Under the pieces are notes generated by a model. That model searched no databases and was not told the DNA's origin. It was given only the letters and a program-made list of their open reading frames with translations. A DNA stretch of 64,000 nt from Apoderus coryli (Eukaryota > Arthropoda > Insecta > Coleoptera > Attelabidae): contig OU452198.1 of assembly GCA_911728435.2 (NCBI GenBank), forward strand, positions 36,919,902 through 36,983,901, given 5' to 3'. Shown piece after piece: positions 28,901-60,828 of the stretch (within the stretch, counting starts at the first letter, position 1; each line of letters begins with the position of its first letter). A program made the position numbers and the translations under genes.

Positions 28901-31900
28901 CATCAATCTTTTGGGCACTATACATTTTATTCACTGCACAGAGCACTCCACCTCCTCTTTGTTTTTGTGTTTGTTTGGCGTCTCTATCAGACCTAAAAAT
29001 TTCATACCTGCTGTCAAAAAGTTCCCGTAGTAAATTCCGTCATGAAGCCAGGTTTCCGTTAAGCCAACAGCACCAAGTTTGCACTGGATCGCGTTTAGGT
29101 AGAATCCACTTGTTTTGGTAGTAAACTTCTAGTTAAGATGTTTTGCTTGTTGTATTAGCCATTGTAGTTTATTTTGCGTCTGTGTTGTTCTAGCTTTCTC
29201 TGGTATGCTTGGCATGCGTAGTCTATTGGAGAATGTTCTCGATCTGGTAATCCAAGCTTTTTACAATTTGGACTATCATATGCAGTCTTTTCTTTGCAGT
29301 CTGTAGCTCCATGATTTCCACCACAGAAGTAACAAAGAGCTTGGTTTTTACAATATTTTAAGACATGTCCAAATGAACAGCATTTAAAACATATACTTAG
29401 CAACACTTAGGTATTCTTGTATATACATTTTTGCCAGATCAAAATATAAATTTTCTCCTCTCATAAAAAACAGTAAAATTTTACAGGTGAACCTTCTTGT
29501 TCTAACCAGTAAGTGATAGAAACTCACTGGTACACTTTGAAATTTATAATTTACCTGCACAAAAGCATGCAAGCAAGTTAGATAGACTGCAGGTATAGTT
29601 GCGGCATCTTCCAGAGACCAGTTATCTGGTACATCCACAATATTGTACCAAGGAGTTGCTAGTAGAGTTGTCAGAGCCCCTTGATGAGCCATTCCTGCGA
29701 CCCGTCTACCACTATAAAAAGTATAAATTTAACAAGTGATCACTCCAATTGTATGTATTAATTAAGTGCATTTTGAAAAGAGCAAAATATTCCCTAATTT
29801 AAAGAATATGTACATTTACATTATAGAAATACTAAATTAATATTCAAATCGTTTCTTCTTGCCCTCGAAATTAATGCTTTATGAGGAAATAATGGGACAT
29901 AGGGCGAAGTAGTCACAACATTCAATTAAAAGATCGCAACGTTCCGTGATTTTATTATCACTTTTTCAAGCTCTCTCTCATCAAAATGCTGTACATAATA
30001 ATATACCTACAGTCTTATTTCATGGCGTAAGCAGAAAAATTGCATTTAATATGCCATCAAATAAGACTATATTATTATGTACAGCATTTTGATGAGAGAG
30101 AGCTTGAAAAACTGATTATAAAATCACGAAACGTTGCGATCTTTTAACTGAATGTTGTGACTACTTCGTCCTACATATATCCAACTATTTCCTCATAAAG
30201 CACTAAATTTATATTTTACTGAGAATTACGTTTGTGTTCTTCCTGAATACTCAATACCAATAACACACTCTTGCTGTCTACGATCTCTTGTTATCACGTC
30301 AACACTAATTTTTCCAGACATAGTCATCACATCTCTAAAATTCAATGAAGCATAATAAACCTGCAAAAAAGCAAAACCCTGGTATGAGACTAACACCAAT
30401 GAGAACAGCTTACATAAAAAAAACCTTTAATTAATTCAATATTTTTTGAGAAATTCTACTTCCAGGTTTAACTCACCATTGCCAACTTCTCTTTGCACAT
30501 TGTGTCAGTATATTTTGACGTTTCGTCACTGATTTATACCTTTCTCAGGTTGCACGTTTGAATAAAAATAGGTTAGTTTTTCACCATCAAATGTTTCTTT
30601 TGCTAATAGCCATAATCTTGATGAATTGTTAGTGTCAACTTATTCTTCGAAAATATTCCAATACAGAGGAAGAAGGAGCAGATTAGTTCCGAAACGTAGC
30701 TTGAATTGAAGAAAATTACATTTACTTCTCATACCGATTTACAATATGAATTTAATTTATAGCCATTTAGTATCGTACAGTATTATGACCGATATTGTTT
30801 TGGCTGACTATTTTGATCAAAATTCAACTGCGGAAAGAGTATCGATAATAGCAATTTATTCTGAAAACGGTAGATGTGCTAACGTTACAGCACCGTTGTT
30901 TAATGAACGAAATTCAGATAAACAAATTATATACGTAAGTAAACTTTTAGCTAAATTTAGGGAAATAGCATATAATCTAAAAATGTTTTTCAGATGAGAG
31001 TTCGTTTTTTCCTGAACGGCACTGATAATAACCCACACTTATTTCATTGAGTTCACACTTAACACACTTTGAAGCTAAACGTGTGGGTTGGAATTTATGA
31101 AGGTTGTACTGTTAGTCATTTTTTTCTACCAAGATATCTTACAGAAATAATAAATGAGGTCAACAAGATTGGGCACCTCCTCACTATACGCTTGCTGTTT
31201 GTCAGTATTTAGATGAATCCTTTCCTGGAAAAAGAGTATCAGTGGACGGGCCCGCAAAATCATCAGATTTAAATCCGTCTAAAAATTGTATTTTATAAAA
31301 TGAACCTGAAGAAGGTGAAACTGTGGAAAGGTGCAACTTTACACACTAAAAAAATGGGGAAAAGTGCTTTACCGTACGCTCGTAGGAAAATATTGACAAA
31401 GTTATAAATCAGTAAGAAAACGTCATTTTCTATAGGCTTATTACCTCAAATGTACTGACACAATGTGCAGAAAAACGTTAGCAATGGCGAGTCAAAAAGA
31501 CAAATGTTTAAACTTAATTCCTGAAATTAGGAATCAGCATTCACAAAAAAAAATAATAAAAAGAAAATATAATATAATTCTGGTGAAAGCATGGTAGCGT
31601 GAAACAAATTTCCAACATAACTAAAAGTCTTGTTACTTTATGTGACAAGCAAGTCGTAATATAATTTATTTAATATCACCAATGAACCTGTCACAAGTTG
31701 GCAGTCCGATTCGATTGACATAGCTAACGCATTTTCGAACCAGTTTAGTGACGTTTTGACGTACGAGACGACCAAAGATCTACCAATATTACCAGAAAGT
31801 GCAAAAAACCTTCAGTCACTGACTAAAGTTAATTTTACATGTGACAACGTTAGCGAAGCTATAACATCTATAAAGCCAGATTCGAGTCTTGGGTCAGATA

Positions 31901-34900
31901 AAATACCTCCGGATTTCCTGTCATCATGATGAGCGTTCACTCGCTAACGAGTATGAATTACTCCAACTCAGGGATTTCTGTTATGAACCCGAAGATGGCT
32001 AAACAAACAGATCCTCGAGCCACATATTTTGTTATAACACTGACACACCCAATATCCACCATTTACAGCCTGTTGTAGGTGCGCTGCCCCATCGATGCGT
32101 TATCTCTCCTTTCGATGCTGTCTCTTCGCATCCTCATGTCGTCGACGTTGCTCCTCAAAAACTTGATGACTCCCGTAAATGGTACGTCTCCATCTCGGTC
32201 GCTCGTTCGCGATCTGCTCTCAGTTGTTCTTCACATCTAAGCCACACTTCTTCATGTTGCTCTTAAGAAGCTCATTGTACCTCTTTTGCTGTCCTCCCTG
32301 ATTTCATGAGCCGACCTTAAGCTGTGTTCATCTTTCACAAGTTGAATGACCGTTCCCACAAACATCGAAAACAAGGTCGGTGCAATGACACAAGCCTGCT
32401 TTACGTCAGTTATTATTGGAAAGTGCTCTCCCGGTCCGCTGCTGTTGAGAACTGCTGGTTTCATATTATTGTTAAGGAGTCGAAGTATCCGGACGAATTT
32501 GCGGGGATCCGTTGAGCTTCAATATCCTCCACAGAGCCTCACGGTTAACGTAGTCGAACGCCTTGACAAGATCTATATAACCCATGTATAAAGGACGATT
32601 TTGCTCCTGTGACCTTTCCTGTATTTGCCTGGCACTAAATATCATGTTGGCAGCTTTACCCCTGTTGAGTATAAAACCACATTGTTTTTCCGGCAAGCAA
32701 CTTTCGGAGAGTGGCAGAAGACGATTGCTCAAAATTCTTGCAATATTCCGATGGAGAGGAGAGAGATACCACGATAGTTTCCACATACGGACCTATGCCA
32801 CCTTCTTAACTTGACTGTAGTAACAATTGAGACGTTTGGCATTTCAGCTGGCACGGTTTCGGTATTCCATATTGGTTATTACTATTAATATCACTGGTCC
32901 TTCTTTAAAAAGCTCAGCAGATATGCCATAAAAGCCAGCTGCTTTGTTGGTTTTAAGTTGTCGAATAGCTTTATCAACTTCTTGCAGGGAAGGTAAATGG
33001 TTTGATGTTATGTGATACCCATTTGGAAGAAGAGAGATAAGTTCAATATGGAACATTACCGCCCTGCTAGCTTGACTTGAACACTTCGTACGTGTAAAGG
33101 AGAAAGACATCACCAAAGCCAGGATGTATTTTGTGATGGAGTCTAAATTTAATGACATATCTTCTTAAACCGCTTAACTTGTGGACAAAACAAAATGAAG
33201 ATTCCCGGTTTTGGTTGGCATGCCACATGGATCCGTTCTTGGATATTATTTTTAATCTTCATATCTGATATTAATAATGTTACATCGCTTGTCAGATTTC
33301 CCGATGACACTAAGTATTTACTTGACCCTGTTTCATCTCAGCAGAAATTCAAACCTAATGCGAAACAGCAAAAAGGTAGATAAGGGAAGGTGTGCTCGTA
33401 GAATTTTATTGCAAACAGAGTGTATATTTATATGGAATGCGCTGTCGGATGAAGTAATAACTAAACTGCGAAGAATAGATTCAATGATGTTTGAGAAGTA
33501 GAAAGAAGCCACATAATTAATTAGTCATTGTAGTTGGGCAGCAGATTCAGGATTTAGTTTTACACTTAAATCGTACCTACAAGTAATAGGGAAATGTGTA
33601 TATACCTATAGTCATATTGATTAATGGTGTAATACCAGTCTAATCGGCTTTTACCGCTTATTATTAATTTAATATTATATTATAAGATGCTTGCCGTGAG
33701 CTAGTAAAAAGGATTTACCAATTAAAATTAGAAAACCCGTTTTACCACTTCACCAAAACACTAATTTAAATTTCGACGTGCCTTGTGCAACATATTCAGG
33801 AGAGAATTAAACTAATTAATATAATTTTAGTTATGCTCTCCTCCGCGCGTCGTTGTTTAAATAAGCGTGATTTCTAATTTTTATTCTACTCATCGATTAT
33901 ATTGAACCAATAATTAAAAACATTGTTTCCAAAACTTACATCAATTAACTCATATTCCGACTCTCTCGGACGATCATGAGTTAACGGTCCTTCGATCCAT
34001 TTGATCGTTGACAAATCGCCTTTGACTAAATTGTTCACATAACAATGCTCAACATCGATATGCTCCAAATCTTCTAAAAGCAGATGTCGATAAGTACCCC
34101 AATGTCCATTTTTATAAACATTAACAGCCATATTTTTCTTTAACTGCTCTACATAGAACGGATGGTTTGGATCGAATGCTGGCACGTCTTCATCAGCGAT
34201 AAACACACATTTAACGTTGGAACCACCGGGTTCTCGTCTGATACAATTGACAAGACCTAAAACACCGCTTAACGGTTCGTTTTGTGTATAGACGACAACG
34301 TTTGAATCTTTCTTCATTGTATTCTGTAGTTTTGGTAGCCAAGAGAATGATTTGTCGTTGAACGATGCATTCACTATGGTTGGTGAATGATGTTCTGGTA
34401 TAGCTTTTCGGAAGAGGACCAACTTCTCATCCTTCGTTGTGTGAATTGATAGCACGGTTATGTTTGGAAGATTCAGTGAATGGAAGTTAGTATCTAAAGG
34501 TTCACGAGAGATTATGTATCCGTTTGGTTTTAGTGAGCCAAAGGCTAATTGGAGAATCTGTAACAAAGCCAAGAAACAGAAAATCTAAGCAAATCTGTCA
34601 CACACTACACAACCACCAGACGTCCGTTCCGGTACTCTGAATACATCAAATTTTATAGCTGACAAGTTGTGTACCAAAGGGTAATTAACACTTGAGTTCT
34701 TACATTAGGCCTCTGCAAAATCTGCGTCCCAATAACCATCAAAAATTCAGTTTTCGTTAACAATTGTCTATTCTCTACTTTCACATTTACTATATCTTCT
34801 ATAGGTTTATTTGATAAAATCATAATCTCACATTGGATTAGAGGTAAATCGCTCAAAACATCAAACAAAATCGGAGCTAACGGCTCCAATTTCTCATTGG

Positions 34901-37900
34901 TTATCTCATCAATCAATTCAACAACTTTTACTTTAATATCAGGCGTATTCTCTAACAATAATTGCATTAGAGCACGTAATGAATGATGGGTGGGAATGTT
35001 TTTTGCAAAGTTTGGAATAAATTCATATTTTTCGAGAACTGGTGTGCCAAGGTTCTTTCTGCGGGCTATTGAGCTGGCATTGAGTCCACGAATTTCTATT
35101 CCACCAGATCTGGAATTAAGGGTAAGCAAAGAAGTCACATACATAAAAAAATGATTAAAAATTGGGCCCGAATGTTAAGCATTTCATGTATATTGATGAA
35201 TCGAAAAATAAACAGGTTATACGATCAGTTTTAAACAAATTTGGATAAGTATGTAAAAAATTCGGGCTCACCTGATAATTCCTGCGTTCGGTATAAAATA
35301 CAATGGCAATATTGGATTCTCATCGCCATAAGATTGGGCAATCTTAATATGTTTTTTAGCATCAATTGTCAAGCGCTTAATTGTAACTGGTACATACAAC
35401 AATCTGGTATCTTCTTCCAGAATTTTCAATTGAAGCATATTGTCCATGAATGAAATCCAATTACCAGTCCATACTAGCTCGCCACGTTGACAGCTGTTGT
35501 CGCAACTTTTTAGAGCACGAAATTCATCTCTGATAAACGACGACAATATCAATTTTACGCCTTTTTTGATACAATTTAAAAATTCTTATTTTAAACACAA
35601 ACATCGTTTGGAATGACTTCCACACAACTGTTACAAAAAATAATCAAGGTAAAGTTTCTCACATACTTGTAGTTATATCCACGTAACCTCAACTCCTTAT
35701 AAATGTCTTCGTTGGTTAGCCTAGGTTGAATTTCAGAACTGATGCCTTCCGGTAAAGGAATTGGTAAAAACTCTCCATCCAAGTCGTTGCGAATTTTAAT
35801 ATTCCCACAAACAACGGTTACGTCTCCTTCAATTACTTCAAAGTTTCCAGTTCCTCTCTAAAAATTAAAATCTATATTAGGCAACTTTTAATTTCAATGT
35901 ACGCATTTTGAATATGGAAATAGGTCTGGAATTGGTGAAACGTGTCTTACAAAGTTACTACCACTAGGCGTTATTGTGCATCTGACACAGTCTAACCCAT
36001 ATCCTCACTACCTACGATCCAGAAACGGCAACCATTTCCGGAATACTTTCTAATAGGTTAGCCTGCTTCTGTGCGTTGTGCGGTTGGAACATGTCACATA
36101 ATCTCCGGTTTCCTCAATCCCCAAATCTCGATAAGTCGGAAGTGATCGCCAGCCGCCGATTTGCAATATCTTGGTGACGAAAGAGCATCTTCTTGTCTCA
36201 TGCCATCTTATAACTTAAAGGGAGGCATTTGAACTGAAGTTGTGAGCTTCTCAAGATTCAGAATACGAAGGGAATAAAGCAGAAAAACAAACTTACCTGT
36301 ATCATAACAGTTAATTCCAATGTAGATCCTTCTATCGGTATAGAGCAAGCACGCTTAAATTTACAATTTTCAAATACTACTTTCATTTCAGATAACATCA
36401 GCCCATGAATGTGTGCTAGCGTTTCCCAGGCAAGTTGTAAATAACCAGTAGCAGGCATTAGTTGACGTCCTAAAACCCATATCTCTTGAGTTATAGAGTA
36501 TTTTTGCAAAATAAATAAAAACATCTTTAATATAGTGACGTTTATATTATACCGTTGATCTTTTGACTACCAGCAAATCTAGTTACTCCTTTGGCTATAG
36601 AATGTCCCAAACCTGATCAGGCAGAGCCGAAGTATAATTTTTATACCTCTATCTGCATCACAAGTCCTTTATACAGGGTGATTCAAAAAGATGGGGCAAT
36701 AATTAAGGGGATGATGTCTCAGGTCATTTTATGAAAAAAAGTTTCCATAAACAAACGTCCGGAAATGCATTGTTGCCAAGATACAAGGTGTTAATTTTTT
36801 TTTTAATAATGTTTTTTTATTAAGTCAAATATCTCCTTACCGACTTCTTTGAAGTTTGGCAGCGTTGTTGCTAGCAATTGGAAAGCCCTAATTATATCAA
36901 AATTATTAAGACCAGTGTAAGTGTACTGAGATAAAACAACAAAAACTAGAACTTTTTTATCTCTCGTATTTTTTTCATATGATGCTTTATATATTATATA
37001 TCTCGTAAATATAAATTTAAAACATTTTTCAACATACCAAGAATATTTGCGAATAATTCAACTAAAAATAACATTAACATTTCAAAGCAAGATAAAAATA
37101 AATAAATAAAATTAACATTTATACTTTATACAAAAAGTGTTAAAAGGGACCATCTCTAGCTCAGATACATAAATCCAATCTTCTCTTCATTGACTGGCGA
37201 ACTCTCTCAAAAATACCAGGGTCGTTTCCAATGGAACTATACCCACGAATAATGTGATTCCTTAGATCCTCCACATTTTCCACAAGAGTAGCGTAAACTA
37301 AGGACTTTAGGTGGCCCCACATGAGAATATCCAGTGGGTTTAAATCCAGAGATCGTGCAGGCCATAAGTGAGGTCCACCTCGGCCAATTCAGCGATTTCC
37401 GTATATTTCTATTAAAAATTCACGGGCAACCCGACTAAGTTGCGCTGGTGCACCATCGTCCTTAAACCACATTGGATTTCTTATTGTCAATGGCACTTTT
37501 TTCAGGAATCCAGGAAGCTTGTGTTCTAGAAAGTCGCGATATACCTCTCTGGTAAGTCTTCCAGGTAGAAATACGGGTCACAATTCCGATCCAAACGTCA
37601 AACGAGAACTGATAATAATAATAATAAAATTCTCTATTTACCTGTATCTACAATTTAAAAATTGATGTTAAAATGTTATTCAATTATCACATGCGAATTT
37701 TCATCACACCATAATGGTTATTATGGAAATTCCTTATTGCATTTCTTGAAAAACTCGCTTTATCGGTAAAGACAATCAACATCAGTAGTTAAGGAATTTC
37801 AACAATTTTGTGCAAAAGCCATTGACAGAATGGATATAACAAATTGTCCTTAAGAATGCGCAAAACAGTACAGGTGTTACTTACATTCAAAATCTCAGCA

Positions 37901-40900
37901 ACTTTTCAAGTAGAATTACCTGGATTTTCTTCAACCATGTTTAGCACATCCTCTTCCAGCTCTACCGTTCTTACTGTCTTTGGCCTTCCTGTCCCTCCAC
38001 TTCATTTTATTGTGCCTGTTTCATGAAGGCGTCGATGACTGCTTTCGAAAAGCTTCGTATCAGGAATCATACGCTGAGGAAATCTTTCAGTGTACAACGG
38101 CATAGCTTCTAATGCATTGCCATCAGCGAGTCCATAAATGAAGTGTATGTAGGTCATCTCAGCATTTGTATAGTGAGTCATGTTAAGGGACTTCAACAAA
38201 TTTGACAGATTCAAAATGATTGGCGCAGTCAACTAACATGAACGTTATTGATTTTTAGTCGAATTATTCGCAAATATTCTTTGTATGTTAAAAATGTTTT
38301 ATATTCAAAAATCAAAATTACAGTCAGTGGCGTACATTTTTTTTGCCAATAATTGTTATTAGGTTGCCCCAAAAACGCCACTGGACTTTATAATTTTGAT
38401 CTAGTTAGGGTCATATAAGCTCCCTATTTCTAGCAGCAACCCTGCAAATTTCAAAGAAATCGGTAAGGAGATATTGGCCTTAACTAAAAAAAACCGTTAT
38501 GTACAAAAAAAAATTATCACCTGTAACAAACAATACCTAGTACGCCCCTGTCGTCACTGCACGTGTGCTTTTCGGCATCCAGAGTGTTTACTTCAGTGTA
38601 ATTACGTTTTGGGATATTTTGAGGTCAGTGTGTGTAATTTTCTAATAACAAATTATTTGGGATAATTTGGTATAATTTGGCCGACTATGTTTTTAGTGAT
38701 TTCAAGTGTCAAATTGTTTTTGCTTATTCTTTTTTTTTGGGATATGACAAGACCGTCAGTCTGCGTGCCGCCTGTGACCACTCTTCTTCTAGTATGGCTT
38801 ATGGCTTCCTACCTGGTACTGGCTCTATATATACTATACAGGAAAAATGCAAAAGCAAACATCCACAATTTGGCTGTATTCAGCATTACAGCTTTTTTTT
38901 TAGTTATTTTTAGCCTTTTCCATTGGCAACAATGGTTGTGTTTAAAGTGGTGTAATTTGATGCTCATTCAGGAGGGATATTTTCAGTCTCAAGTGTTGGG
39001 AACACTGTATTTTGAGTTTAGTTTTATACTTTTCTGCGACCTTTGTGTAACTTTATTCAGTAGAAAACTAGATTTTGCAGCAGATGCATGATAAATTTAT
39101 TTCATTTTATTTTAGACATATAATATAACATTTAATTTGTAGTCATACCTAATTAATAAATTATTTAAACATTAAACAACCCAACTTTTATCCGTTTCCA
39201 AAAACCCCTAACAAAAAACCCTAAAAAAACTTAACAATATCAAAGCTTGCAACACACCTTGTATTTTGGAAACAATGCATTTCCGGGCGTATGTTTACGG
39301 GAACTTTTTTTCATAAAATGACCTGAAAAATCACCCCCTTAAATATTGCTGCGTCTTTTTGAAACCACCTGTACATATATACAATATACATAATATATAC
39401 AGGGTGTTTCATTAACAATGGGACAACCGTTACCTGGAGTTACTACCGGTGAAATAATACTGATTGACCTAAACTTGCCTTATCCAACTGTGATGGTTTA
39501 GGAAATACAGGGTGATCTCGGCTTTAATGCGATTCTTTATAAATTACCCACTGTTTTAATTTGTTTTTTTTTTAAATGGCACTATGTTATTTTATATCTT
39601 TCAATAGATATAATTATACTAATATGATCAAGCAAAAATTCAACATGCTGAGCAATGAGCGGAACCTAAAATGGTTAATACCGTAAAATTTGATTATATA
39701 AATGTTTATTGTATTATTTGTATTACAAAGAAAGTTGCGTCGATACTCCAAATTGCATGAAGTCATCAACAGTTAAATAAAATTAAACTTCGTTTGAAAT
39801 ATTGAGAACGTTTACAACTACTCACCGTCAATTAAATGGCCACTCAAAAAAGCAAATCCAGGATCTTTCAGATATATTCCGGTAGTTTTCTCCTCGGTCT
39901 TAAGCTGCTGATCAACTTTATAATAATTAACGAACCAATCATGATCATGGTTCCACTTAATCTTCGAAGATATCATCGGTGTACCGCGACTAACTGGAAA
40001 CTCGACTTTCGGATATATTTTGTGAATTTGTGGATTATGTCCAGATTGGTATAATTTACCCAAAACATCTAACAAACTATTAAAAACATTTGAAAGGTAC
40101 ATTAGAGGACGTTCTGATTTTAAAAATGCCATATTCTTTCCAATCGGTTTTAGGCCCAGAATAATTACATCGGAATTGGATTCTATCTCTACACCTTTCA
40201 GTGTAAAGTTGTCTGTGCTATTTTCTACATATAGTTTTAAGGACTTTCCTGATATTTCTTTATGCTTTGGCAGAAAAATACCATTAAGATTCTTAGGTAT
40301 TGGTAGTATTTTAACGATTTTAGTTAAAAGCTCATTCGTTGCTGTAAATAATAAATAAATTAATTAATAAAAATTAGTAATCAATTAGACAAACTTTGCT
40401 TCAATAACCCCCAATTTCTCTAAAAGCGAAACAAACGATGTCCATGTTTGACAAGTCTCTTCTCAAGAAACCTTTAGAAGTTTATGACATAACTAAGGTG
40501 ATGAGGCCTCCCAGGCCTCTCTAAGGGGCCACCAAACGACACAAAAATTTATATTTGGCATCTGTTTTTGTCAGAGATCTTAATATTTGTGATTATCATT
40601 TGTATGCAGATGACAAGCAGATTTATGGTGTCTTTAACCTAGCGAGGCCCCGTTCGCTGTAGATCGTATTAATAGAGACCTCAGAATGATGAAACATGCT
40701 GAAACTGAATACTATAATTTTTGTGATGACAAAATTGTCGGAATCAGATTCACCAAAATACCGTTGAACTCAGGATTACCAGATCTCCTATTTTTAATAT
40801 GAGACTCATATATTTTAACTCTTTCTCATATCTCCTATTAACATGCTCAATATGAGACTATTTCTCATATATTTTCGTGCCAGGCCAGGTGGCCAGTAGC

Positions 40901-43900
40901 ACGTGGCAACCCTAGTTGCACGTACTACGGTAACACTAAATTTTGATATTTCCTGCTGTAATGATTTTTATGATTAAGCTTTAACAGACCTTAAATTATC
41001 AGAATGCCGCAGTTGTTTGAAATACCAAAAAACAAATTAATTGTTAAAAGATTTGAAACTATCTTCCTAGGTATGTCATTGTTTCTTTGTATTACAGAAT
41101 TTAATATTTCAGTTTTAGTTTGGTTTAATAATCATATTATTTTGTGTAGATACATATTTCTAGGTTTAGGTACATTACATTCATGTAAAATTGCAATAAT
41201 GCCGCAGTGCGTGTATTTTTTCTTTAATTTGCAGTTATGTGCTAATGAATGAAATTTATGTTTAATTTAATTATACCTAAAAGTTTATTTTTCAATTTGT
41301 ATTAATTCAAAAATGTAGGTATTTTGCAAGACATAAAATTCTCATATATTTTTATTCAATCTCATATAATTGTATATGGGCTAACCTATTTTTGATATTC
41401 ATATATCTGGCAACCCTAGTTGAACTTGATAAGGATATTTTGGAATACCAACAATCGTCAAGGAATTTAGGAGTTATTTTTGATCGTAAGCTGCGATTCA
41501 AGAATCATATAACTTCAAAACTCAAGATTGGATATGGCATATTAAAACAGATATACCCACATCGACATTCTGGCAAAAACTCAAATGTGTGATGCTCTTC
41601 TTTTGTTGCATTTAAACTATTGTGACAGCATCTACGGTCCTTGGCTTGATAGTAGGTATTGATAACAGGAAAGTTCAGAAATTGCAGAATTCGTGTCTGC
41701 GGTTGATCTTTGGCTTTAGAAGGAGACAATGAATATTTCACAAGCTTAAAAGAGGCGGGTTAGATGAATATGTATAGCAGACGCATTCTCCATACAACGT
41801 GCTGTTGTTATAAGATCATCAAATATAAAACACGTCCTTATCTTGAAAAAAAAATTGTGTATAACATTTAGTCTCTTATTTGAAGTTTATAATATTTTAT
41901 TTCTTTGTTTTAATTTTTTATTAATTATATTATAGTTCAGCCTATTATTGTACTGTCCTAGTTTCTGTGTTGTTTATTAACTATTATTTTTAATACAATA
42001 TTTTAAAAAGTTTTTGTTTCTTAGGCGTCAACAGTACTCAACTTACTTGAGAGACTGAAAATTAACCTATTTTAGTTCTAATAATAATTTGGTGTTTTTT
42101 AAAAAATAATATCTAAATAATGTTTTTAATGTGTTGATTGTATTGAATTTTAAAGTTGTTAGAAGAATTACAATCTTTAACTTTAATTGTATTTGTAGCT
42201 TTGCATAAACAATATTGATGTAATTTCAGGATATCTCAAAAGCAAGACAAAACGTCGTAAGACACTTTGGAAATTTAAAAAAAGAAATAATTTTCGTCTT
42301 ACTTGAGACAACCCGAATACTTAAGTCTCTGATCATGTCTCAGACCCAAGAAAAATGTCGTAAAACCAGTTAAAAATAAACGCAGGAAGATATTTTGATG
42401 TTACTTGACGGAAGCCGAATACGTCTCACTGACTTGTGGGTCAAGAACTATAAGCCGTTAATACAAAAAAAAAAAAAAATCGGTTGTGGCACCCCAAAAC
42501 TTTCCCGACAAGTTATAATATAATCCAAAATATATGACCTGCGTAACGAAACAGAGAATAATAATAATTATAATTGTATTATTTGCATTATTTCCAATAA
42601 ACTAACGTAACAAACTAACTATTTTATTCAAAAATTAGAGGAAAAAAAAAGTATTTCCAGAGCTGAGATTCGAACCCCTAACCTTCCGAATACGAAGCAA
42701 AGGCTCTAACAACGAGGCCACGGTACCAGCTATCGTATATACCTACTCGTATTGTATTTTAAATGTAATATATATAAGTTCCAACTACCTAACTGCTTTA
42801 AACGCAATTTTCTCGAGAATTATGGGAGCAAATATCAAAAATGAGCAATCGCTGTAAAGTAGATCAAAAATTCTTTAAAATGACGTATCACTCGACCCCT
42901 ACTGATATATGAAAATTTAGCGGTTGTGTCCACCTCTATCACAGAGCTTAAACTCAACTGGTAAAAGCGTTTGGGAGCTATCGTGGTAGAATACATACAG
43001 ACACACACACAGACAAAGACTTCCATCTGGAAATGCTCTTAATCGTCTCAAGGAACTTCAAAATGGTTATATCCGTCTTTATCTCAATTTTTTTATCGCG
43101 TTCATAATACTTTTACTGTGCCGGAAAAGGTAATGATATTTGAATATATATATATATGGCTATAACTTAAGTTTGGTATATGATAGAGACTGCCGGTTTA
43201 CGTCATTGTGTTTCTCATTTACTGTAGAGTATTTTGATTAAAGCCAAGCTGATATGACCACATTTAAATTCCGCTGCTTATTTTTCCACGAGCTGCGTGG
43301 CAAATGATGGAGAATATTCAACTTGCAAAAACACTGACATGGACTCTTCTTCTTCTTCGGATGCTATCCACTAATGGATGTTTGCGATCACATTTTCCAT
43401 CTCCTCTCTATCTCTTGCGTTGTGAATTAGGGTCTGTATGTCATTTATTCCTGTCCGCTGTCTTATGTTCCGCAACCAGGACAATTTATTCCTTCCTATC
43501 CCTCTACGGCCCTCTATCTTACCCTCGATCAACAACTGTAAATACTCATACTTCATGTTCCTCATGACGTGCCCCAGATATGAAGTCTTTCTCTTTTTTA
43601 TGGTGGTTAAGAGTTCACGTTATTTGTTGATGTTGGACAGAACTTCTACGTTTGTTATTCTTGCAGTCCACGGTATCTTGAGCATTCTGCGGTAAAGCCA
43701 CATCTCGAACGCTTCCAATTTGTTAATGTTGTTGACTTTAAGGGTCCAACCTTCCATCCCGTAGAGAAGTACTGACCACACATAGCACTTTAAGAATCTC
43801 AACCTCAGACCAAGATCGAAGTCCGAGCAACTAAATACTCTCCTCAGTCTTAGGAATGCTTGTCGGGCTTGTTCGATGCGACTTTGGACCTCGATATCAG

Positions 43901-46900
43901 AGGTCCAGTCTTCAGATAACCACATGCCCAAGTATTTAAATTTGTTCACTCTGTCTATGCGCATTGCGTTGAATGTTAACTGTGAGTCTGCAAACGGATT
44001 TAGGTTCCTTGATATTATCATAAACTTCGTCTTTTTAGTGTTTATGTTTAGACCCATCAATCTGCTACGTTGACCGACTGTGTTGATCAGTCTTTGTAAG
44101 TCTTGCATGTTACCAGTGTTGAGCACTGTGTCATCAGCATAACGTATGTTATTAATCCACACTCCGTTGACTTTAATACCGATTTCCGCATCTTCCAATG
44201 CTTCCCGGAAGACATGGACTATCAAACAATAATCCTCTACAATGGTTGCAATTTACAAACATGACATCTATGAGCTTATATATCACGGTAATACCCAATT
44301 AAGTTTTGTTATATCTTGTATGGACACATGAAACATAAATAAAAATGCATTTGGCAAAAATATATGAGAACAGAAAATAATATTCAATGGAAAACAACTG
44401 TTAAATCAAAAGGTTTTAATTACGAGTCTAAATTATAAATAATTAAAAAAGCCATAATATTTAGTTATGAATAAAGAGTTCAACATAAAACAACAGAAAC
44501 TGAGCTTTAACTTTTTAGTTATATGGTTCCGCTTAATCCCACTACAGAAAACAAAAATCACTACTTTCTTCCAACTCACCATTTTTATTCGCTATTTGAT
44601 CCCGACACCTTGCTATTATATAGGCACATTCAAGAACTTCTTTCAGAGTTAATGTATCTTCAAAGTATGCGCAAACAAGCAACGACATCACATCCAATGC
44701 AAATATGCCTTTAGGTTTGATATTAATGTTTCTAATTATATTGACCATGCCCAATTGTATTGCGACATTGGCCAAAGTGCTTTCCAAATTTGATACGTTT
44801 TCTGGATGACTAAGTACATGAGTTATGTCAATTTCTTTTTGAGAAAGAATGGTGTGAATACTGAAAAAAATAAATTTGAAACATAGATTAAACTTATTAA
44901 ATATTAATTAATTATTATGTATTAGTATTTGTATAAATTTACAAAATAAAGCCGATGGCGTATTGGATCAGCCAAAATGAGTTGTACTCGTATATCTGTA
45001 CAAAATGTTTACTAGCAAAAAAGAGGCCAGCAAACAGCTTATTATCAAAAATTACTTGTGGGAAATATACATATAACTATATTTCGCTGGTTCTCAATTT
45101 CTCTGGGAACATATGATTGAGTCGAGCTGTGAGATTTGAGCTAATCCCATCGACAAATATTTGACACGTAATGTGGACACCCAAATCTGAGTCTAAAATG
45201 TGAGCAACGCGGTTTTTCACTTTCAAATCCATTTAACCGCTTGTATCATTAAAATAAATGGTTCTGCATATTGTCAACCTATTTTGTCTAAAAATGCCGA
45301 AGTCCTCTATTTAAATGCTCCGCAATGTAGGTAACCATGGCTTACCAGCAGTTCCAGAAATTACAAACCTAAATCCACTGACCCGTCATATATATTTAAA
45401 TGCCAGTAATGCTAGTCCTCACGCTTTCCAGACAGCACAACACAGTTAAGCATAATGAAATTGAATTAATATGCATCAGCGTCAGGAAACATTTTGGTTT
45501 CGCTTCCGCCATGTGTAGCCGACCGTAAGACCTTTATCTCTAGAAAAATTTCATTTCATTTCATCATTTATACTAAAAAATTTAGGAAGATACTGTTCAG
45601 AAACAATGATATACCGAATATCGGAGACTCCCTGAGTAAAATAGTAGTTACCTACTGCTACCTACTTCTTAATAGTTGCAGCAAAAACTGGAACCTCCAT
45701 CATTTCTTTGCTACTGGATGTACATTCCATTTCAATGAAACCAAGATAAAATGGAACAAATTTGTAACGATACTCTTTCGTCGATCTAGTTACTTCACCA
45801 TATTTGGATACAATTGAATAGCCTCTACATAAATGTCCTTCAACATCTTTGCTGGAATAAAAATGTTACATTAAAGATAAAGTAGGTTCACTTACGAATT
45901 GAAAACTTCTTTATCGGATACAACTGGTAAGTATTGTATCCATACCTGAAAATTTGATGTAATAATCCAACATGCTCCGCATCCAGATTATGCTCCCTGA
46001 CATCGTCCAGTAAAATTTCAATAGCCATTTGATTTCTTCCACTGATACAAACCAATCTTGCTAAATTATCTTTAGGCCTACCTCCATTAATTTTAGTTTT
46101 GACATTGTGTTGCAAAAGTATGTGACAGTTTGCGCCTCCAAAACCAACATTGGTAATTGCTGAAAAACGCTGTAGATGTGATTTGTTAGATGATATATTA
46201 TTATAATCCTACCAATTAAGCCCTTGTCATCCTGAAAACGCATTTTTTCAGTAACTACTTTTAATCTTCCATCTTCCAATGCCTTTATTCCCGACCTTGG
46301 TGTTTTGTAATGAAGATTTGGTGGAATATATCCGGTTTCATACGCCAAAATTACCTAAATGCACGTTTAGCATATTAATAGAATGCAGTTATTTTTATAT
46401 TCATCATAATAAACTTACCTTCGTTATTGAACATAAACCAGAAGCAGGTTCAGTATGTCCTATATTAGACTTAACAGACCCAATTAATAGTGGCTTACTT
46501 CTTCCTTTGACAAAAATGTCTTCAATAGCTTGTAATTCTTCTGGATCTCCTACTTTGGTACCTAAAGATAAAGGTTTAACTATTAATTTAAGCCTTGAGA
46601 GCACAATTTAACTATTTCACCTGTCCCGTGTCCTTCTAAAAAGCTTAACTGTGTTGGTTTAAATCTCTGACATTCCTGGTAAATTTCTTTCAACAACTGA
46701 GTTTGCATCTCTCTGGATGGGAAACTTATACCAGAATCCTTGTATCCGTCACAGTTTGTTTTAGCATGGATTACAGTGGCATAAATTCTGCGTGCTTCGT
46801 TAGATTTTTGCAGAATTACTGCACAAACTGCTTCTGATCGAACATATCCATTTCCTGATTCATCGAATACTTTACAGTTACCATCCATACTTAGAACTCC

Positions 46901-47942
46901 AAACCTGTTTAAACAAAAGTTAGTGAGGAACAAGAAGCAAGGAATGCTGGCTGGCTCTATAAAATATATAACATGATGTGCATTTAAAAAAAAATACTAT
47001 TTACCTTGCAAACTGTAGCGATACAAACGGATGTAGACACATGTTGGCGCCAGCGACAATTACTCGGTCACATTTACCGGTTCTTATAGCTTTGTATGCA
47101 TGCTCAAAAGCATATAAAGAGCTTGAGCAGGCCGTGTCACAAATAAATGATGGAGCATCCAGCTTCAAAAAGTAACTGATGCGGTTTGCAAGAGCTACGG
47201 ACCGTTGACACCTAATAAAATAAATATAACGTATTAATAAATTATAAACAAAAACAAATACAGGAGCTTTCGTAATAGATATTAATGATGTGAAAGTAAA
47301 ACAGGGTAATTACCCTTGAATAGCGAACGTTTCATGACCCAGTCTATCGAAGAACCATGTTTTCTCATTTTCACTAAAGCAACTGCCGATAAAAACACCT
47401 GTTCGAGTACCTTCAAATTCAGAAGGATGCATGCCCGCATCAAAAATAGCTTCGATAACTTTTTCCAAAAGCATTCGACCCATTGGATCCATACTAGTAG
47501 CTTGTCTATGGTGTACACCTTAAATAATGAAAAAAGAAAATGTACATCCTTTAAGGACCAGCTCCATTTCTTCTGACTTACCAAAATATCCCGCATCAAA
47601 CTTTGCAATATTTGGTACTTTCCCAGTTCTCTGTGGAATTTCTGGATGACCTGGCTCCCATCTTCTACTGTCACCTGACACCATATCGACTTTATTAAAC
47701 AAATTGTCAGCTAATTCGTGAATATCATTAGCATCCGGATATCTGCCAGAGATTCCTAAACAAAATTAAAACATTCAAATGTTTGGAACCACTTTTTAAA
47801 TTTATTGATTAATCATACCAGATATTACAACCTCTTCGCCAGAAGGTGGATTCGCTAACAACCTTCCAAATTTTATTGAATTAGTATCGATTGGATCATC
47901 CAGGTCTGAATTGTGATCCACGTTGTTGTTCGACAGAGCCAT
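19798..47942 (-). CDS. FASN: Type I fatty acid synthase with degenerate acyltransferase domain (27 coding exons)
   Basis: A multidomain cytosolic enzyme that elongates and reduces acyl chains from malonyl-CoA and NADPH. Exons, 5' to 3': 47,942-47,819; 47,755-47,582; 47,518-47,314; 47,211-47,005; 46,904-46,621; 46,561-46,419; 46,354-46,213; 46,159-45,946; 45,851-45,666; 44,860-44,580; 40,341-39,826; 36,469-36,297; 35,857-35,667; 35,529-35,272; 35,109-34,704; 34,557-33,940; 30,360-30,230; 29,711-29,555; 25,799-25,634; 24,676-24,196; 24,135-23,980; 23,914-23,509; 23,448-23,241; 23,174-23,024; 22,964-22,649; 20,528-20,268; 20,157-19,798. All introns are GT-AG and every phase matches. The total is 6,915 nt, 2,304 residues, roughly 100 shorter than usual for insects, mainly in the acyltransferase. 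Domain order is KS, degenerate AT, DH, non-catalytic central region, ER, KR, ACP, TE. Start: first ATG downstream of a TATA box. Transcript evidence is needed for the exact junctions. Confidence 0.93.
20960..21370 (+). pseudogene. BEL/Pao integrase C-terminal relic in FASN intron 25
   Basis: Plus-strand pieces match the tail of a BEL/Pao polyprotein: a [13 protein letters not shown] segment at about 21,030, [13 protein letters not shown] at about 21,150, and a lysine-rich segment leading to RKWLENN. Then, in another frame, comes [10 protein letters not shown] and the end of the integrase. It is broken by frameshifts and stops and is antisense to FASN. It differs from the copy at 50.6-58.6 kb. 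Confidence 0.65.
21640..22175 (+). pseudogene. mariner transposase C-terminal relic in FASN intron 25
   Basis: Plus-strand scraps in alternating frames resemble the end of a mariner transposase: [10 protein letters not shown] (the SPDLxPxDxxxF block), [12 protein letters not shown] and [17 protein letters not shown] near the terminus. The copy is 5'-truncated and frameshifted. It lies antisense to FASN. Confidence 0.6.
22350..22560 (+). pseudogene. LINE reverse transcriptase N-terminal scrap in FASN intron 25
   Basis: The frame contains [20 protein letters not shown] followed by [11 protein letters not shown], the segment that precedes the first RT motif in Jockey/CR1-type LINEs. Nothing of the catalytic core follows. 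It is antisense to FASN. Confidence 0.6.
23024..23174 (-). CDS. FASN: FASN exon 24: acyl carrier protein
   Basis: The phosphopantetheine attachment serine lies in [16 protein letters not shown] (Ser1963), the standard carrier-protein motif. The domain runs from the end of exon 23 (ANILG) to [11 protein letters not shown]. The donor of exon 23 was placed at TTGG|GTAAAA, which restores the frame across ANILG-LKDLK; the frame track otherwise runs into a stop in the intron. Confidence 0.9.
23241..24135 (-). CDS. FASN: FASN exons 21-23: ketoreductase domain
   Basis: The Rossmann fold begins with [17 protein letters not shown] (glycines about 1,699-1,705). The catalytic region is in exon 22: [19 protein letters not shown] supplies the Ser and Tyr, and the following MAN the Asn. 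WGAIGE then joins VGIVANM of exon 23. The domain appears intact and NADPH-dependent. Introns 21-23 are short. Confidence 0.9.
24196..30360 (-). CDS. FASN: FASN exons 17-20: enoyl reductase domain
   Basis: Exon 17 opens with [17 protein letters not shown] and runs to [10 protein letters not shown]. Exon 18 carries [11 protein letters not shown] and [19 protein letters not shown]. Exon 19 holds the NADPH-binding turn [11 protein letters not shown] (from His1483), and exon 20 [25 protein letters not shown] and the C-terminal [11 protein letters not shown]. The order and spacing are those of an intact NADPH-dependent enoyl reductase. The donor of exon 17 (AAC|GTAATT) was chosen because it restores the GR-x4-GRRV segment typical of the family. 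Confidence 0.9.
25259..25298 (-). ncRNA. Hammerhead ribozyme core, left arm
   Basis: On the minus strand: CTGATGA (25,294-25,288), stem II GGAG/CTCC, GAAAC, minimal stem III AC..GT and triplet GTC. It is on the same strand as FASN, so it lies within the intron 19 transcript. It is identical in its core to the right-arm copy. Confidence 0.72.
25386..25426 (+). ncRNA. Hammerhead ribozyme core, right arm
   Basis: CTGATGA (25,390-25,396), stem II GGAG/CTCC, GAAAC (25,412-25,416), stem III AC..GT and triplet GTC (25,419-25,421). Stem I can form from AGG before the core and CCT after the triplet. It is antisense to FASN. Confidence 0.72.
25966..26404. repeat. Long inverted repeat (hairpin) in FASN intron 18
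   Basis: Arms of roughly 170-200 bp, about 25,966-26,147 and 26,195-26,404, are inverted copies. Shared blocks include TTTTGACTGCAGTAGCTGAA, the stretch around GACGACGTG/CACGTCGTC, and TGAGACTTACTATGGAA/TTCCATAGTAAGTCTCA. The loop is about 50 bp. No coding content. It is probably a fold-back MITE. Confidence 0.8.
26457..27975. repeat. 1.5 kb dispersed repeat, copy 1
   Basis: It matches 52,534-54,107 over its length, from GGGCAATAGAATTTACT to GGTTACAAT. On the minus strand an internal stretch begins TGTTACGGTTCGATTCAA, and AATAAA signals occur, which is LTR-like; on the plus strand there is a GGTGACCGA motif near 27,700. No open frame of note. It may be a long solo LTR or a non-autonomous element. 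It lies in FASN intron 18. Confidence 0.65.
28190..29402 (-). pseudogene. LINE fragment: ORF1 zinc knuckles and endonuclease
   Basis: Reading from 29,402 downwards the frame first shows two CCHC-type knuckles ([14 protein letters not shown] and [13 protein letters not shown]) of a LINE ORF1 or gag-like protein. An AP-endonuclease part follows with TETWLHDG and a [10 protein letters not shown] segment. Then the frame 28,771-28,271 gives [14 protein letters not shown] (GDFN turned to GGFN), DLIVSD and [10 protein letters not shown]. The reverse transcriptase is missing. It lies in FASN intron 18 on the FASN strand, about 150 bp from exon 18. Confidence 0.75.
29908..30186. repeat. Long inverted repeat in FASN intron 17
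   Basis: Arms at about 29,910-30,000 and 30,075-30,180 are inverted copies containing CGAAGTAGTC/GACTACTTCG, GATCGCAACGTT/AACGTTGCGATC and the TACAGCATTTTGATGAGAGA block. The CGAAACGTT segment recalls the Penelope-type termini, but the CUGANGA box is changed (CTGATTA), so I do not call a ribozyme. Confidence 0.75.
30470..31492 (+). pseudogene. Mariner-like (ITm) transposon relic with inverted ends
   Basis: The ends (30,470-30,545 and 31,395-31,492) are inverted copies sharing GCACATTGTGTCAGTA. Between them the frame 30,746-30,997 holds an N-terminal helix-turn-helix domain ([20 protein letters not shown]). Scraps of the catalytic domain follow ([12 protein letters not shown] near 31,080, LDESFPGKR near 31,210). 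It is frameshifted and dead. It lies in FASN intron 16, antisense, and belongs to the same broad transposase group as the relics at 17.0 and 37-38 kb. Confidence 0.6.
31565..31680. repeat. Inverted copy of the 16.5 kb repeat
   Basis: This stretch is the reverse complement of about 16,515-16,610, including the segment that reads TTGGAAATTTGTTTCAC on the minus strand and the near-palindrome CTTGTTACTTTATGTGACAAG. Confidence 0.7.
31681..31925 (+). pseudogene. LINE fragment ahead of the RT core
   Basis: The plus-strand frame reads through [20 protein letters not shown] and [20 protein letters not shown], the linker and first RT block of a Jockey/CR1-type LINE, and breaks off at about 31,925. It is antisense to FASN. 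Confidence 0.7.
31930..33165 (-). pseudogene. LINE reverse transcriptase fragment in FASN intron 16
   Basis: On the minus strand, from 33,158 downwards: [20 protein letters not shown] with SAELFKEG (first RT block), [23 protein letters not shown] (split across lines of the alignment), [17 protein letters not shown] motif A (32,600s) and [15 protein letters not shown] (32,400s). The frames are broken and the YxDD block is missing. This LINE belongs to a different lineage from the Jockey-type copies nearby. Confidence 0.75.
33195..33510 (+). pseudogene. LINE reverse transcriptase scrap
   Basis: The plus-strand frame shows a GxxxGSVLG-type segment followed by [17 protein letters not shown] and DDTK, the region around the RT active site (PDDT for the usual ADDT). 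It is short, broken and antisense to FASN. Confidence 0.65.
33940..35109 (-). CDS. FASN: FASN exons 15-16: central non-catalytic region
   Basis: These two large exons (136 and 206 codons) encode the structural core between DH and ER, corresponding to the pseudo-methyltransferase and pseudo-ketoreductase parts of animal FASN. Recognisable landmarks are [12 protein letters not shown], the [14 protein letters not shown] strand, a [13 protein letters not shown] strand with [12 protein letters not shown], and [12 protein letters not shown] at the exit. Exon 16 ends in phase 0 with YELID and joins [10 protein letters not shown] of exon 17. Intron 16 (3.6 kb) is filled with transposon debris. Confidence 0.88.
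35272..40341 (-). CDS. FASN: FASN exons 11-14: AT remnant, linker and dehydratase domain
   Basis: Exon 11 (40,341-39,826) begins with the C-terminal AT remnant, then the linker helix ([14 protein letters not shown]) and [17 protein letters not shown]. The dehydratase hot-dog follows: His822 in SGHLIDG with the HxxxGxxxxP pattern completed by exon 12 ([10 protein letters not shown]), and the second catalytic acid as Asp976 in FMDNMLQ (exon 14). [18 protein letters not shown] in exon 13 is the usual inter-subdomain segment. Both DH catalytic residues are present. Introns 10 and 11 (4.2 and 3.4 kb) are swollen by LINE, hAT and ITm elements. Confidence 0.9.
37140..38235 (-). pseudogene. ITm-type DDE transposase pseudogene
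   Basis: From 38,232: helix-turn-helix domain [17 protein letters not shown], with the [12 protein letters not shown] segment and [11 protein letters not shown]. Then [17 protein letters not shown] and ENPGNST, after which frames break (a TAA tract at about 37,610). The catalytic half is readable at 37,590-37,150: [14 protein letters not shown] with the second acidic position, and [10 protein letters not shown] with the third region. It has several frameshifts and stops, so it is dead. Its N-terminal domain is shared with relics at 17.0 and 30.8 kb. Confidence 0.75.
38687..39091 (+). CDS. 134-codon hydrophobic (multi-pass membrane) ORF of unknown family
   Basis: An intact ATG-to-stop frame encoding about four hydrophobic segments: [44 protein letters not shown], and [16 protein letters not shown]. 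Short polar loops carry TRPSVCVPP and YRKNAKAN. No signal or family is recognised. It lies on the plus strand in a roughly 730-bp segment that interrupts the right inverted repeat of the 36.7-39.4 kb transposon, whose transposase is dead. A broken relative is found at 18.48-18.76 kb. It could be a transposon accessory gene, a captured host exon or an independent small element. Expression is unknown. Confidence 0.4.
   Translation: MFLVISSVKLFLLILFFWDMTRPSVCVPPVTTLLLVWLMASYLVLALYILYRKNAKANIHNLAVFSITAFFLVIFSLFHWQQWLCLKWCNLMLIQEGYFQSQVLGTLYFEFSFILFCDLCVTLFSRKLDFAADA
40560..41870 (+). pseudogene. LINE fragment split by a hAT-type MITE, in FASN intron 10
   Basis: The left part (40,560-40,770) encodes [20 protein letters not shown] with the RT active-site ADD. 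The right part (41,419-41,870) encodes [20 protein letters not shown] and [16 protein letters not shown], then broken pieces of the C terminus ([13 protein letters not shown] near 41,690). The two parts are contiguous once the MITE at 40,771-41,418 is removed. It is old and full of stops. Confidence 0.75.
40771..41418. mobile_element. hAT-type MITE with 8-bp target duplication
   Basis: The 8-bp direct repeat GTTGAACT (40,763-40,770 and 41,419-41,426) flanks ends that read inward CAGGATTACCAGAT and TAGGGTTGCCAGAT. Subterminal CTCATAT motifs are repeated near both ends. An 82-codon ATG frame inside (41,004-41,252) encodes a hydrophobic peptide without recognised domains. An 8-bp duplication and CA/TAGGG ends fit the hAT superfamily. 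Confidence 0.75.
41871..42650. other. Intron 10 sequence without recognised features
   Basis: AT-rich DNA, no frame or terminus recognised. Confidence 0.4.
42655..42727 (-). tRNA. tRNA-like sequence, probably SINE head or tRNA relic
   Basis: On the minus strand the order is an A-box-like TGGCCTCGTTGTTAGAG, an anticodon-arm region with TTCGTAT (a CGT anticodon would be threonine), and a B-box-like GGTTCGAATCT. The acceptor stem does not close well, and the B box departs from the consensus at its last base. It is likely a SINE head or a tRNA pseudogene. Confidence 0.4.
43371..44225 (-). pseudogene. LINE reverse transcriptase C-terminal half in FASN intron 10
   Basis: The frame from 44,225 to 43,620 encodes the RT palm and thumb: [20 protein letters not shown] with the intact active-site [25 protein letters not shown] and [10 protein letters not shown]. 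After one stop it continues (43,565-43,371) with [20 protein letters not shown] and [15 protein letters not shown] to the natural end. It is 5'-truncated and otherwise well preserved, with about one stop in 280 codons, so it is among the youngest LINE copies here. It is on the same strand as FASN. Confidence 0.85.
44580..45851 (-). CDS. FASN: FASN exons 9-10: acyltransferase domain, catalytically degenerate
   Basis: The frame continues from the KS linker ([10 protein letters not shown]) into what should be the malonyl/acetyl transferase. Where animal FASN has the GMGSQW motif, this protein reads [13 protein letters not shown] (about 532-544), in frame and without a length change, before returning to a recognisable [11 protein letters not shown]. 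Where the GHSxGE nucleophile elbow is expected, exon 10 reads [14 protein letters not shown] (612-625), so the serine position is Asp616. Flanks such as [11 protein letters not shown] and the acidic helix after it still align. The later AT half, which carries the catalytic histidine, is shortened: exon 11 resumes at a [13 protein letters not shown] segment that normally lies some 100 residues further on. Exact conservation of frame argues against a simple pseudogene. Confidence 0.85.
44861..45665. other. FASN intron 9
   Basis: About 0.8 kb between the two halves of the degenerate AT domain. I searched it for a missing GMGSQW- or GHSxGE-coding exon on the minus strand and saw none. No transposon protein is visible. 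Confidence 0.5.
45946..47942 (-). CDS. FASN: FASN exons 1-8: N-terminal tail and ketosynthase domain
   Basis: Residues 1 to about 35 are a polar, Asn/Asp-rich tail, then comes the condensing domain (about 35-450). The Cys nucleophile is in DTACSSS (Cys196, exon 4). The two active-site histidines are in EGHGTG (His329, end of exon 5) and [12 protein letters not shown] (His367, exon 6); the 133- and 38-residue spacings agree with animal FASN. Exon 8 carries the [11 protein letters not shown] segment that closes the domain. Introns are short (about 55-110 bp) and free of transposons, in contrast to the later introns. Nothing here suggests loss of function. Confidence 0.93.
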
Positions 47943-60494: not shown

Positions 60495-60618
60495 TACCAG
60501 ATATTACAACCTCTTCGCCAGATGGTGGATTCGATAACAACCTTCCAAATTTTATTGAATTATTATCGATTGAATCATTCAAGTCTGAATTGTTATCCAT
60601 GTTGTTGGTCAACGGAGC
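60495..60618 (-). pseudogene. FASN: Duplicated FASN first coding exon (exon 1B)
   Basis: An ATG frame of 41 codons plus one base, ending at the same GTATGA splice donor as exon 1. Against exon 1 there are 11 codon differences, of which 9 replace an amino acid and 2 are silent; most lie in the first 20 codons. The second half ([17 protein letters not shown]) is kept apart from one change. No FASN exon 2 follows within the duplicated block, but the donor could splice to exon 2 at 47,755, giving an alternative N terminus from an alternative promoter. Otherwise it is a relic. Phase is compatible. Confidence 0.75.
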
Positions 60619-60818
60619 CATAATCGAGAAAAAAATCTATAAAAATTAACGGTTAATAGAGCTATTATAAGAAATTAAAATTTCTACAGGCCCTATGAAT
60701 CATGTCGAATTTCAAATTCCTTACCAAATATGAAAATACAGTTCAAACCCTAAGCAAAATACAGAACCAAGTTACGTCCTATAATCTGTTTTAGAGATCA
60801 TTAAAAAACATTTGGGAG

Positions 60819-60828
60819 CCCTTTTACA
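60819..60828 (-). promoter_or_regulatory. Mutated TATA box of promoter copy B
   Basis: TGTAAAAGGG stands where copy A has TATAAAAGGG. The surrounding bases are conserved. The A-to-G change should weaken TBP binding, so promoter B is probably weak or silent. Confidence 0.55.

What the first reader, a model, noticed from the sequence alone, without database searches (positions are those of the whole stretch)
44580..45851. Full-length FASN with an acyltransferase domain that has lost its catalytic motifs
Seen: 27 exons join with consistent phases into 2,304 codons with no internal stop. All other catalytic motifs (KS Cys196/His329/His367, DH His822/Asp976, ER, KR, ACP Ser1963, TE Ser2116/His2279) are kept. 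In the AT domain, GMGSQW is replaced by an unrelated in-frame sequence (about 535-541), the GHSxGE serine is Asp616, and the C-terminal half with the catalytic histidine is shortened by about 100 residues. Established: that serine and histidine load malonyl and acetyl groups in animal FASN. Inference: a second FASN supplies acyl groups, perhaps within a heterodimer (a trans-AT animal FAS), or the protein has another substrate or role. Selective decay of one domain with an open frame argues against a plain pseudogene.
Basis: partly seen in the sequence, partly recalled or inferred. Interest (0 to 1): 0.87.

Follow-up and report, generated by a model that had tools for sequence, protein, structure and literature searches.

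The report
Beetle fatty-acid synthase missing loading domain
In this beetle one group of fatty-acid synthases has lost the domain that loads its building blocks, while a sister protein has kept that domain but lost most others, which suggests that two crippled enzymes work as one.

Summary
The minus-strand gene (47942-19798; 27 GT-AG exons, 2304 aa, no internal stop) is a fatty-acid synthase in which only the acyltransferase (AT) is ruined. It is neither a pseudogene nor a one-off. Two further full-length tandem copies carry the same AT loss; pairwise whole-gene dN/dS is 0.27-0.42. None of 65 beetle relatives examined keeps AT Ser, Arg and His together, while the other catalytic residues checked hardly vary. 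AT-lacking insect FAS were reported in 2016, so the gene is a new member of a known kind.

How such a FAS is loaded was not proposed in any listing of my ten open-access searches. The same genome holds a mirror image: a FAS-like gene with a complete AT but a dead ketosynthase (Cys to Trp), degenerate KR and no ACP. In 15 matched beetle species AT is the best conserved domain of that protein and the worst of this one. An AT without an ACP must act in trans; an ACP without an AT must be loaded in trans. I therefore propose a two-subunit, trans-AT insect FAS. The pairing is inferred, not shown. An AT-complete FASN in the same genome is the main rival partner.

The parts
19798..47942 (-). AT-degenerate fatty acid synthase gene, 27 exons, 2304 aa (copy A of a tandem array)
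45666..45851 (-). exon 9: end of linker and the decayed GMGSQW segment ([10 protein letters not shown], residue 536 on)
44580..44860 (-). exon 10: AT remnant with the decayed GHSxGE segment (ALDVMSLL) and lost Arg
39826..40341 (-). exon 11: C-terminal part of AT remnant, post-AT linker, DH start; the AT small subdomain and catalytic-His stretch are missing at the exon 10/11 junction
40342..44579 (.). intron 10; no AT exon detectable; holds a reverse-transcriptase-like ORF (43623-44252, resemblance recalled)
46419..47942 (-). exons 1-6: ketosynthase with Cys196, His329, Lys362, His367 kept
23024..23174 (-). exon 24: ACP with Ser1963 kept
19798..20528 (-). exons 26-27: most of the thioesterase, Ser2116, Asp2142, His2279 kept
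60451..60868 (-). second copy of upstream sequence and exon 1 (exon at 60621-60498), 86% identical to 47772-48210; relic of another copy or alternative first exon

Best explanation
The gene encodes a working synthase that can condense, reduce and release acyl chains but cannot load its own carrier domain; its ACP is loaded in trans. The most likely donor is the FAS-like protein encoded on contig C7 of the same genome (gene D), which kept a complete malonyl/acetyl-type transferase and lost its condensing active site and its carrier domain. The two probably pair through their ketosynthase folds, giving a heterodimer with one live AT, one live KS and one ACP. Shown: AT loss; other active sites kept; three tandem copies under purifying selection; gene D's make-up and its conservation in beetles. 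Inferred: trans loading, pairing, substrate (malonyl or methylmalonyl) and product (a specialised lipid such as a hydrocarbon precursor).
For: Intact gene and motifs. Full-length tandem copies B and C with the same AT loss; whole-gene dN/dS with 95% bootstrap ranges 0.32-0.54, 0.24-0.35, 0.23-0.32. In 65 beetle sequences AT Arg is kept in 0, His in 4, Ser in 37, Ser+Arg+His in 0; KS Cys/His/Lys/His and ACP Ser are kept in 47 of 47 rows checked. Gene D: Pfam AT 237.8 bits, no ACP; in 40 beetle rows AT Gln is kept in 40 and Ser, Arg, His in 39 (one row lacks that stretch), KS Cys is Trp in 37 of 37 rows with a residue, no ACP Ser in 40. Mirror test, 15 matched species: AT identity 75% in gene D (its best domain), 26% in the AT-less FAS (its worst); 59% in 11 complete FAS, equal to their KS. 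Both genes are seen in the window genome and 24 named species. [quoted passage not shown] In locust, ACP-less FAS3 and FAS1 are both integumental and affect hydrocarbons (PMC10764717, PMC11855270, passages).
Against: No binding, expression or enzyme data. D-type proteins also occur in insects whose related FAS still have an AT (aphids, whitefly, cockroach), and locust FAS1, co-expressed with ACP-less FAS3, is reported to have all domains; so D did not arise to serve AT-less FAS and may have another client. An AT-complete FASN in the same genome could serve instead. Co-occurrence of two lineages that are both widespread in beetles is weak evidence. The AT value for A-B alone (0.62, 0.24-1.93) does not exclude neutrality, and TE is as relaxed as AT. 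37 of 65 relatives keep a Ser at the AT elbow.
Confidence: 0.55

Rival explanations
1. The AT-less FAS is loaded by the ordinary AT-complete FASN, through heterodimers or transient contact; gene D has an unrelated role.
For: AT-complete FASN on C13 of the same genome with GMGSQW, GHSVGE, AYSRGR, AFHSKY. Heterodimers of animal FAS chains form (PMC6173736, passages).
Against: Leaves the strong conservation of an AT in an ACP-less protein without a client.
Confidence: 0.17
2. The AT-less protein no longer builds chains from malonyl units; it modifies acyl groups delivered by other enzymes, or acts as a scaffold or regulator.
For: An AT is normally essential; Finck et al. left open whether a MAT-less FAS is a FAS or another protein (PMC5039406, passages).
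Against: KS catalytic residues and ACP Ser are kept in 47 of 47 rows, as is the full reducing set.
Confidence: 0.15
3. The remnant retains acyltransferase activity through a changed active site.
For: Ser kept in 37 of 65 relatives, GLSLG in most weevils; remnant dN/dS below 1 in two of three pairs.
Against: In the window gene the elbow itself is gone; Arg is lost in 65 of 65 and His in 61; the identity of the remnant among relatives is 25-35%.
Confidence: 0.05
4. Pseudogene, assembly error or misannotation.
For: None beyond the lost domain.
Against: Open frame in three copies, dN/dS 0.27-0.42, the same loss in many species; relatives are transcribed (PMC5223116, PMC7510082, passages).
Confidence: 0.03

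Closest known systems
Insect cluster II FAS lacking the MAT domain (Finck et al. 2016, PMC5039406; passages)
   Same: FAS paralogue without a recognisable AT, reported for Orthoptera, Coleoptera and Diptera; Tribolium TC15337 RNAi cited with 60% and 40% mortality.
   Different: Function left unclear there; no residue-level analysis or loading partner in the passages I saw. Here: graded decay, intact remainder, dN/dS of tandem copies, candidate donor.
Insect cluster III FAS lacking the PP (ACP) domain (same paper)
   Same: Matches gene D: ACP-less with altered DH, ER, KR, TE; Tribolium TC000238 RNAi cited with 100% larval mortality.
   Different: The paper calls KS and MAT unmodified; in beetles the KS active-site Cys is Trp in 37 of 37 rows with a residue. 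It infers separate origins by order; in my KS/DH/ER tree beetle D groups with cockroach, thrips, whitefly, aphid and bug proteins (100/100), but the AT tree supports this only at 70/86 and puts the butterfly and Leptopilina proteins elsewhere.
trans-AT polyketide synthases of bacteria
   Same: Would work alike: AT-less synthase, acyl groups supplied by a separate protein.
   Different: Not a member: animal FAS lineage; the candidate donor is itself a FAS-like multidomain protein; a far larger AT remnant (last point recalled).
Animal FAS-like polyketide synthases, AFPK (Lin et al. 2024, PMC10764717; passages)
   Same: Arthropod FAS paralogues, some linked to hydrocarbons; beetle clades described.
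   Different: Defined by KS HMM scores; the ar-clade of the window gene was not determined. AT loss is not mentioned in the passages I saw.
Mammalian FASN and EcPKS1/2 structures
   Different: Catalytic AT residues and about 90 residues with the catalytic His are missing.

Membership tests
animal type I FAS (FASN) | KS, DH, ER, KR, ACP, TE with catalytic residues | tested here: met
animal type I FAS (FASN) | malonyl/acetyl transferase in cis | tested here: not met
   no PF00698; Ser, Arg and His lost
MAT-less insect cluster II FAS (Finck 2016) | FAS paralogue that lost the MAT domain and kept the rest | tested here: met
MAT-less insect cluster II FAS (Finck 2016) | position in their cluster II | tested here: inconclusive
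   groups with FAS of Carabus, Bombyx p270 and others (98.6/98); cluster labels are mine, their tree was not available
FAS pseudogene | broken frame or dN/dS near 1 | tested here: not met
trans-AT PKS | AT missing from the synthase | tested here: met
trans-AT PKS | separate stand-alone AT that loads it | tested here: inconclusive
   PF00698 hits in the genome lie in FAS-like genes and one mitochondrial-type malonyltransferase; no loading data
AFPK | KS HMM score and tree position of AFPK clades | not tested
   their models and alignments were not used

The most novel reading that the evidence does not exclude
Insects have an ancient two-subunit FAS: a KS-dead, ACP-less subunit kept for its acyltransferase loads a second, synthase subunit. 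Because the AT is available in trans, the cis AT of the synthase subunit has decayed in beetles and, separately, in some other insects.
Probability: 0.42. Interest if true: 0.86.

Novelty: new variant of a known kind. Interest (0 to 1): 0.72.

Why it matters
Animal FAS is the textbook self-contained megasynthase. Two paralogues with mirror-image losses, each unable to work alone by its residues, would be a trans-AT animal FAS and would join two groups of 'aberrant' insect FAS that the literature describes separately. The prediction is clear: silencing either gene should give the same lipid defect. It can be tested in Tribolium, where both types occur (P0136, P0158) and where RNAi of one gene of each type is cited as lethal to a large part of the animals (PMC5039406, passages). 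It also bears on how insects make hydrocarbons, and on annotation, since FAS models without PF00698 are easily taken for partial models.

Tried and rejected
Hidden AT exon in intron 10: none found with six queries. Decay of the whole gene: rejected. Domain swap in place of the AT: rejected; the remnant aligns along its length with AT sequences and a weevil relative's AT region is predicted as an AT-like core. My first choice of DH Asp (934) and KR Lys (1784) was wrong; corrected to 976 and 1803. The C7 gene looked broken in tblastn (stops); three-frame reading places those stops between exons, but its splice sites were not checked one by one. A beetle-only origin of gene D is not favoured, though long branches may help that grouping, and one outgroup that I labelled cluster I (Drosophila tropicalis, P0213) did not group with the others. 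Co-occurrence as proof of pairing: rejected as weak. Nine species with AT-less FAS had no D-type protein among the 120 listed and eleven the reverse; the lists are capped, so absence says nothing. The species names were typed. Rows left out: proteins of 2700 aa or more before the alignment (4 of 120, 116 plus window kept), P0137 for length and several non-beetle proteins not added; Carabus kept apart from the 65. dN/dS on gene D, expression and multimer prediction were not possible.

Full report
What is there. Pfam assigns ketosynthase, linker, dehydratase, pseudo-ketoreductase, enoylreductase, ketoreductase, carrier and thioesterase domains, but no acyltransferase. In the AT region the GMGSQW segment reads [10 protein letters not shown], the GHSxGE segment reads ALDVMSLL, and the stretch with the catalytic His is missing at the exon 10/11 junction; the region is 92 residues shorter than in Bombyx p270. 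No lost exon is detectable in intron 10.

Relatives. A search with the protein returned, near the top of a capped list of 120, a series of beetle 'fatty acid synthase-like' proteins of about 2280-2340 residues, up to 58% identical over 99%, many of them without a precomputed AT domain. A second search added tenebrionids and Colaphellus bowringi FAS1. Among 65 beetle sequences (window plus 64 picked from those lists, Agrilus and two fireflies included) AT Gln is kept in 2, Ser in 37, Arg in 0, His in 4, and Ser+Arg+His in 0. Among 75 other sequences all four are kept in 48, Ser in 67, His in 70 and Arg in 49, so Arg alone is a weak marker. The decay is graded: ladybirds have a full-length AT with substituted motifs, Brassicogethes keeps Ser and His, weevils, longhorns and leaf beetles have the shortening. 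Carabus, outside Polyphaga, keeps Gln, Ser and His but not Arg, and its AT has a long branch. With the AT left out, the 12 AT-degenerate sequences in the IQ-TREE analysis form one clade (98.4/100) with Carabus as sister (96.2/99). A FastTree of 117 sequences instead separates Agrilus from the other polyphagan sequences (0.94).

The rest of the protein is kept. KS Cys/His/Lys/His, DH His, two ER positions, KR Tyr and ACP Ser are kept in 47 of 47 rows (window, 43 beetle relatives, Carabus and two complete FAS); the TE triad is kept in 46, the exception being an entry with a truncated TE. DH Asp/Gln and KR Lys/Ser/Tyr are kept in 48 of 48. Mean identity of the window protein to 12 weevil relatives is KS 69, linker 50, AT remnant 25, post-AT linker 54, DH 56, structural core 50, ER 56, KR 71, ACP 69, TE 43%.

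Where acyl groups could come from. PF00698 hits in the same genome lie on C13 (9.74 Mb), C1 (28.22 Mb), C7 and again C13 (16.66 Mb), none in the window. The last reads as a mitochondrial-type malonyltransferase. The C13 gene at 9734740-9751957 has all AT motifs and is the candidate ordinary FASN. The C7 gene (gene D, 191.3-219.7 kb) has SGMGSQW, GHSVGE, AYSRGR and AYHSRY, but its KS active site, DTACSSS in the window gene, reads DSNWVGG, the first KS His is Tyr, the KR is degenerate and there is no carrier domain; a thioesterase remains. tblastn with its Ceutorhynchus orthologue covers 2122 of 2142 residues in order, with stops only in alignments that run past exon ends.

Gene D's relatives. 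Its search (120 listed of 2682) returned beetle orthologues P0152-P0189 at 46-65% identity and P0190 at 37%. In 40 beetle rows AT Gln is kept in 40, Ser, Arg and His in 39; KS Cys is Trp in 37 of 37 rows with a residue; no row has the ACP Ser, and none of P0152-P0190 lists PF00550. ACP-less relatives in aphids, whitefly, thrips, plant bugs, a cockroach and small wasps also keep the AT residues, while KS Cys is replaced in most but not in Leptopilina. In 15 species where both genes were taken, AT identity is 75% in D (KS 65, KR 55, TE 43) and 26% in the AT-less FAS (KS 60, KR 66, TE 36); in 11 complete FAS (ten of named insects, one unnamed) AT and KS are both 59%. This mirror is the main new result.

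How it most likely works. An acyltransferase under strong constraint in a protein without a carrier must act on a carrier elsewhere; a carrier under constraint in a protein without an acyltransferase must be loaded from elsewhere. Both occur in one genome, and in 24 named species in the lists. I infer that gene D loads the AT-less FAS, probably as a KS-paired heterodimer: the KS of D is 65% conserved though its active site is lost, as a dimer scaffold would be. [quoted passage not shown] the mutant-complementation work of Rangan et al. 2001 was seen only as a reference there). That D pairs with this FAS rather than with another client is the weakest step, since D-type proteins appear to predate the beetle AT loss and locust FAS1 is reported to be complete.

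What is known. Finck et al. 2016 (PMC5039406; passages) reported MAT loss in cluster II FAS of Orthoptera, Coleoptera and Diptera and ACP-less cluster III FAS, and cite mortality after RNAi of one Tribolium member of each. C. bowringi FAS1 lacks Acyl_transf_1, and Thioesterase in their domain search, and is expressed, while its FAS2 has all nine domains (PMC5223116; passages). In Tribolium an expressed FAS2 has a 6522 nt ORF, the length expected for the AT-less P0136; that identity is my inference (PMC7510082; passages). In locust, FAS3 lacks ACP and FAS5 lacks KS and TE, and the authors speculate that the two cannot complete synthesis independently (PMC11855270; passages). The titles and abstract starts in the listings propose no trans loading between such proteins; the library holds open-access papers only and most listed papers were not opened.

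Verdict. The two-subunit FAS is a new reading with good comparative support and no direct test. On rechecking I lowered the novel case from 0.45 to 0.42 and interest from 0.73 to 0.72, because locust FAS1 is reported complete and TE is as relaxed as the AT remnant.

Noticed in passing
window 60451-60868 (-): Second copy of upstream sequence and exon 1, 86% identical to 47772-48210, open and with the same donor; 9 of 11 differing codons are nonsynonymous. No FAS exons 2-27 were found downstream of it before exon 1 of the gene.
   Followed up: partly
G000:C1:36995143-37022063 and 37061097-37087106 (L023, L024, L027-L032): Two further full-length AT-degenerate FAS in tandem with the window gene.
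   Followed up: yes
G000:C7:191348-219722 (L018-L020): KS-dead, ACP-less, AT-live FAS-like gene.
   Followed up: partly
G000:C1:28205323-28229089 (L013-L015): Another FAS-like gene with GMGSQW, GHSLGE and AFHSKY but Lys at the Arg position; KS hits at 28249617-28256193 may belong to it. Not modelled.
   Followed up: no
proteins P0107, P0114, P0139, P0142, P0150, P0263, P0265: Apparent separate AT losses in a moth, a butterfly, two wasps, a stink bug and two mosquitoes; some may be gene-model errors.
   Followed up: partly
nine Zophobas morio proteins between P0122 and P0138: AT-less FAS with locus tags from Zmor_018363 to Zmor_018400, which suggests a tandem cluster.
   Followed up: no
window 12252-13006 and 13008-13762: Tandem pair, 97% identical over 755 bp, with transposase-like ORFs (resemblance recalled).
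   Followed up: no
gene D and Bombyx p270 against the C13 FASN: The residue before the catalytic AT His is Tyr (AYHS) in the former and Phe (AFHS) in the latter; perhaps an extender-specificity difference.
   Followed up: no
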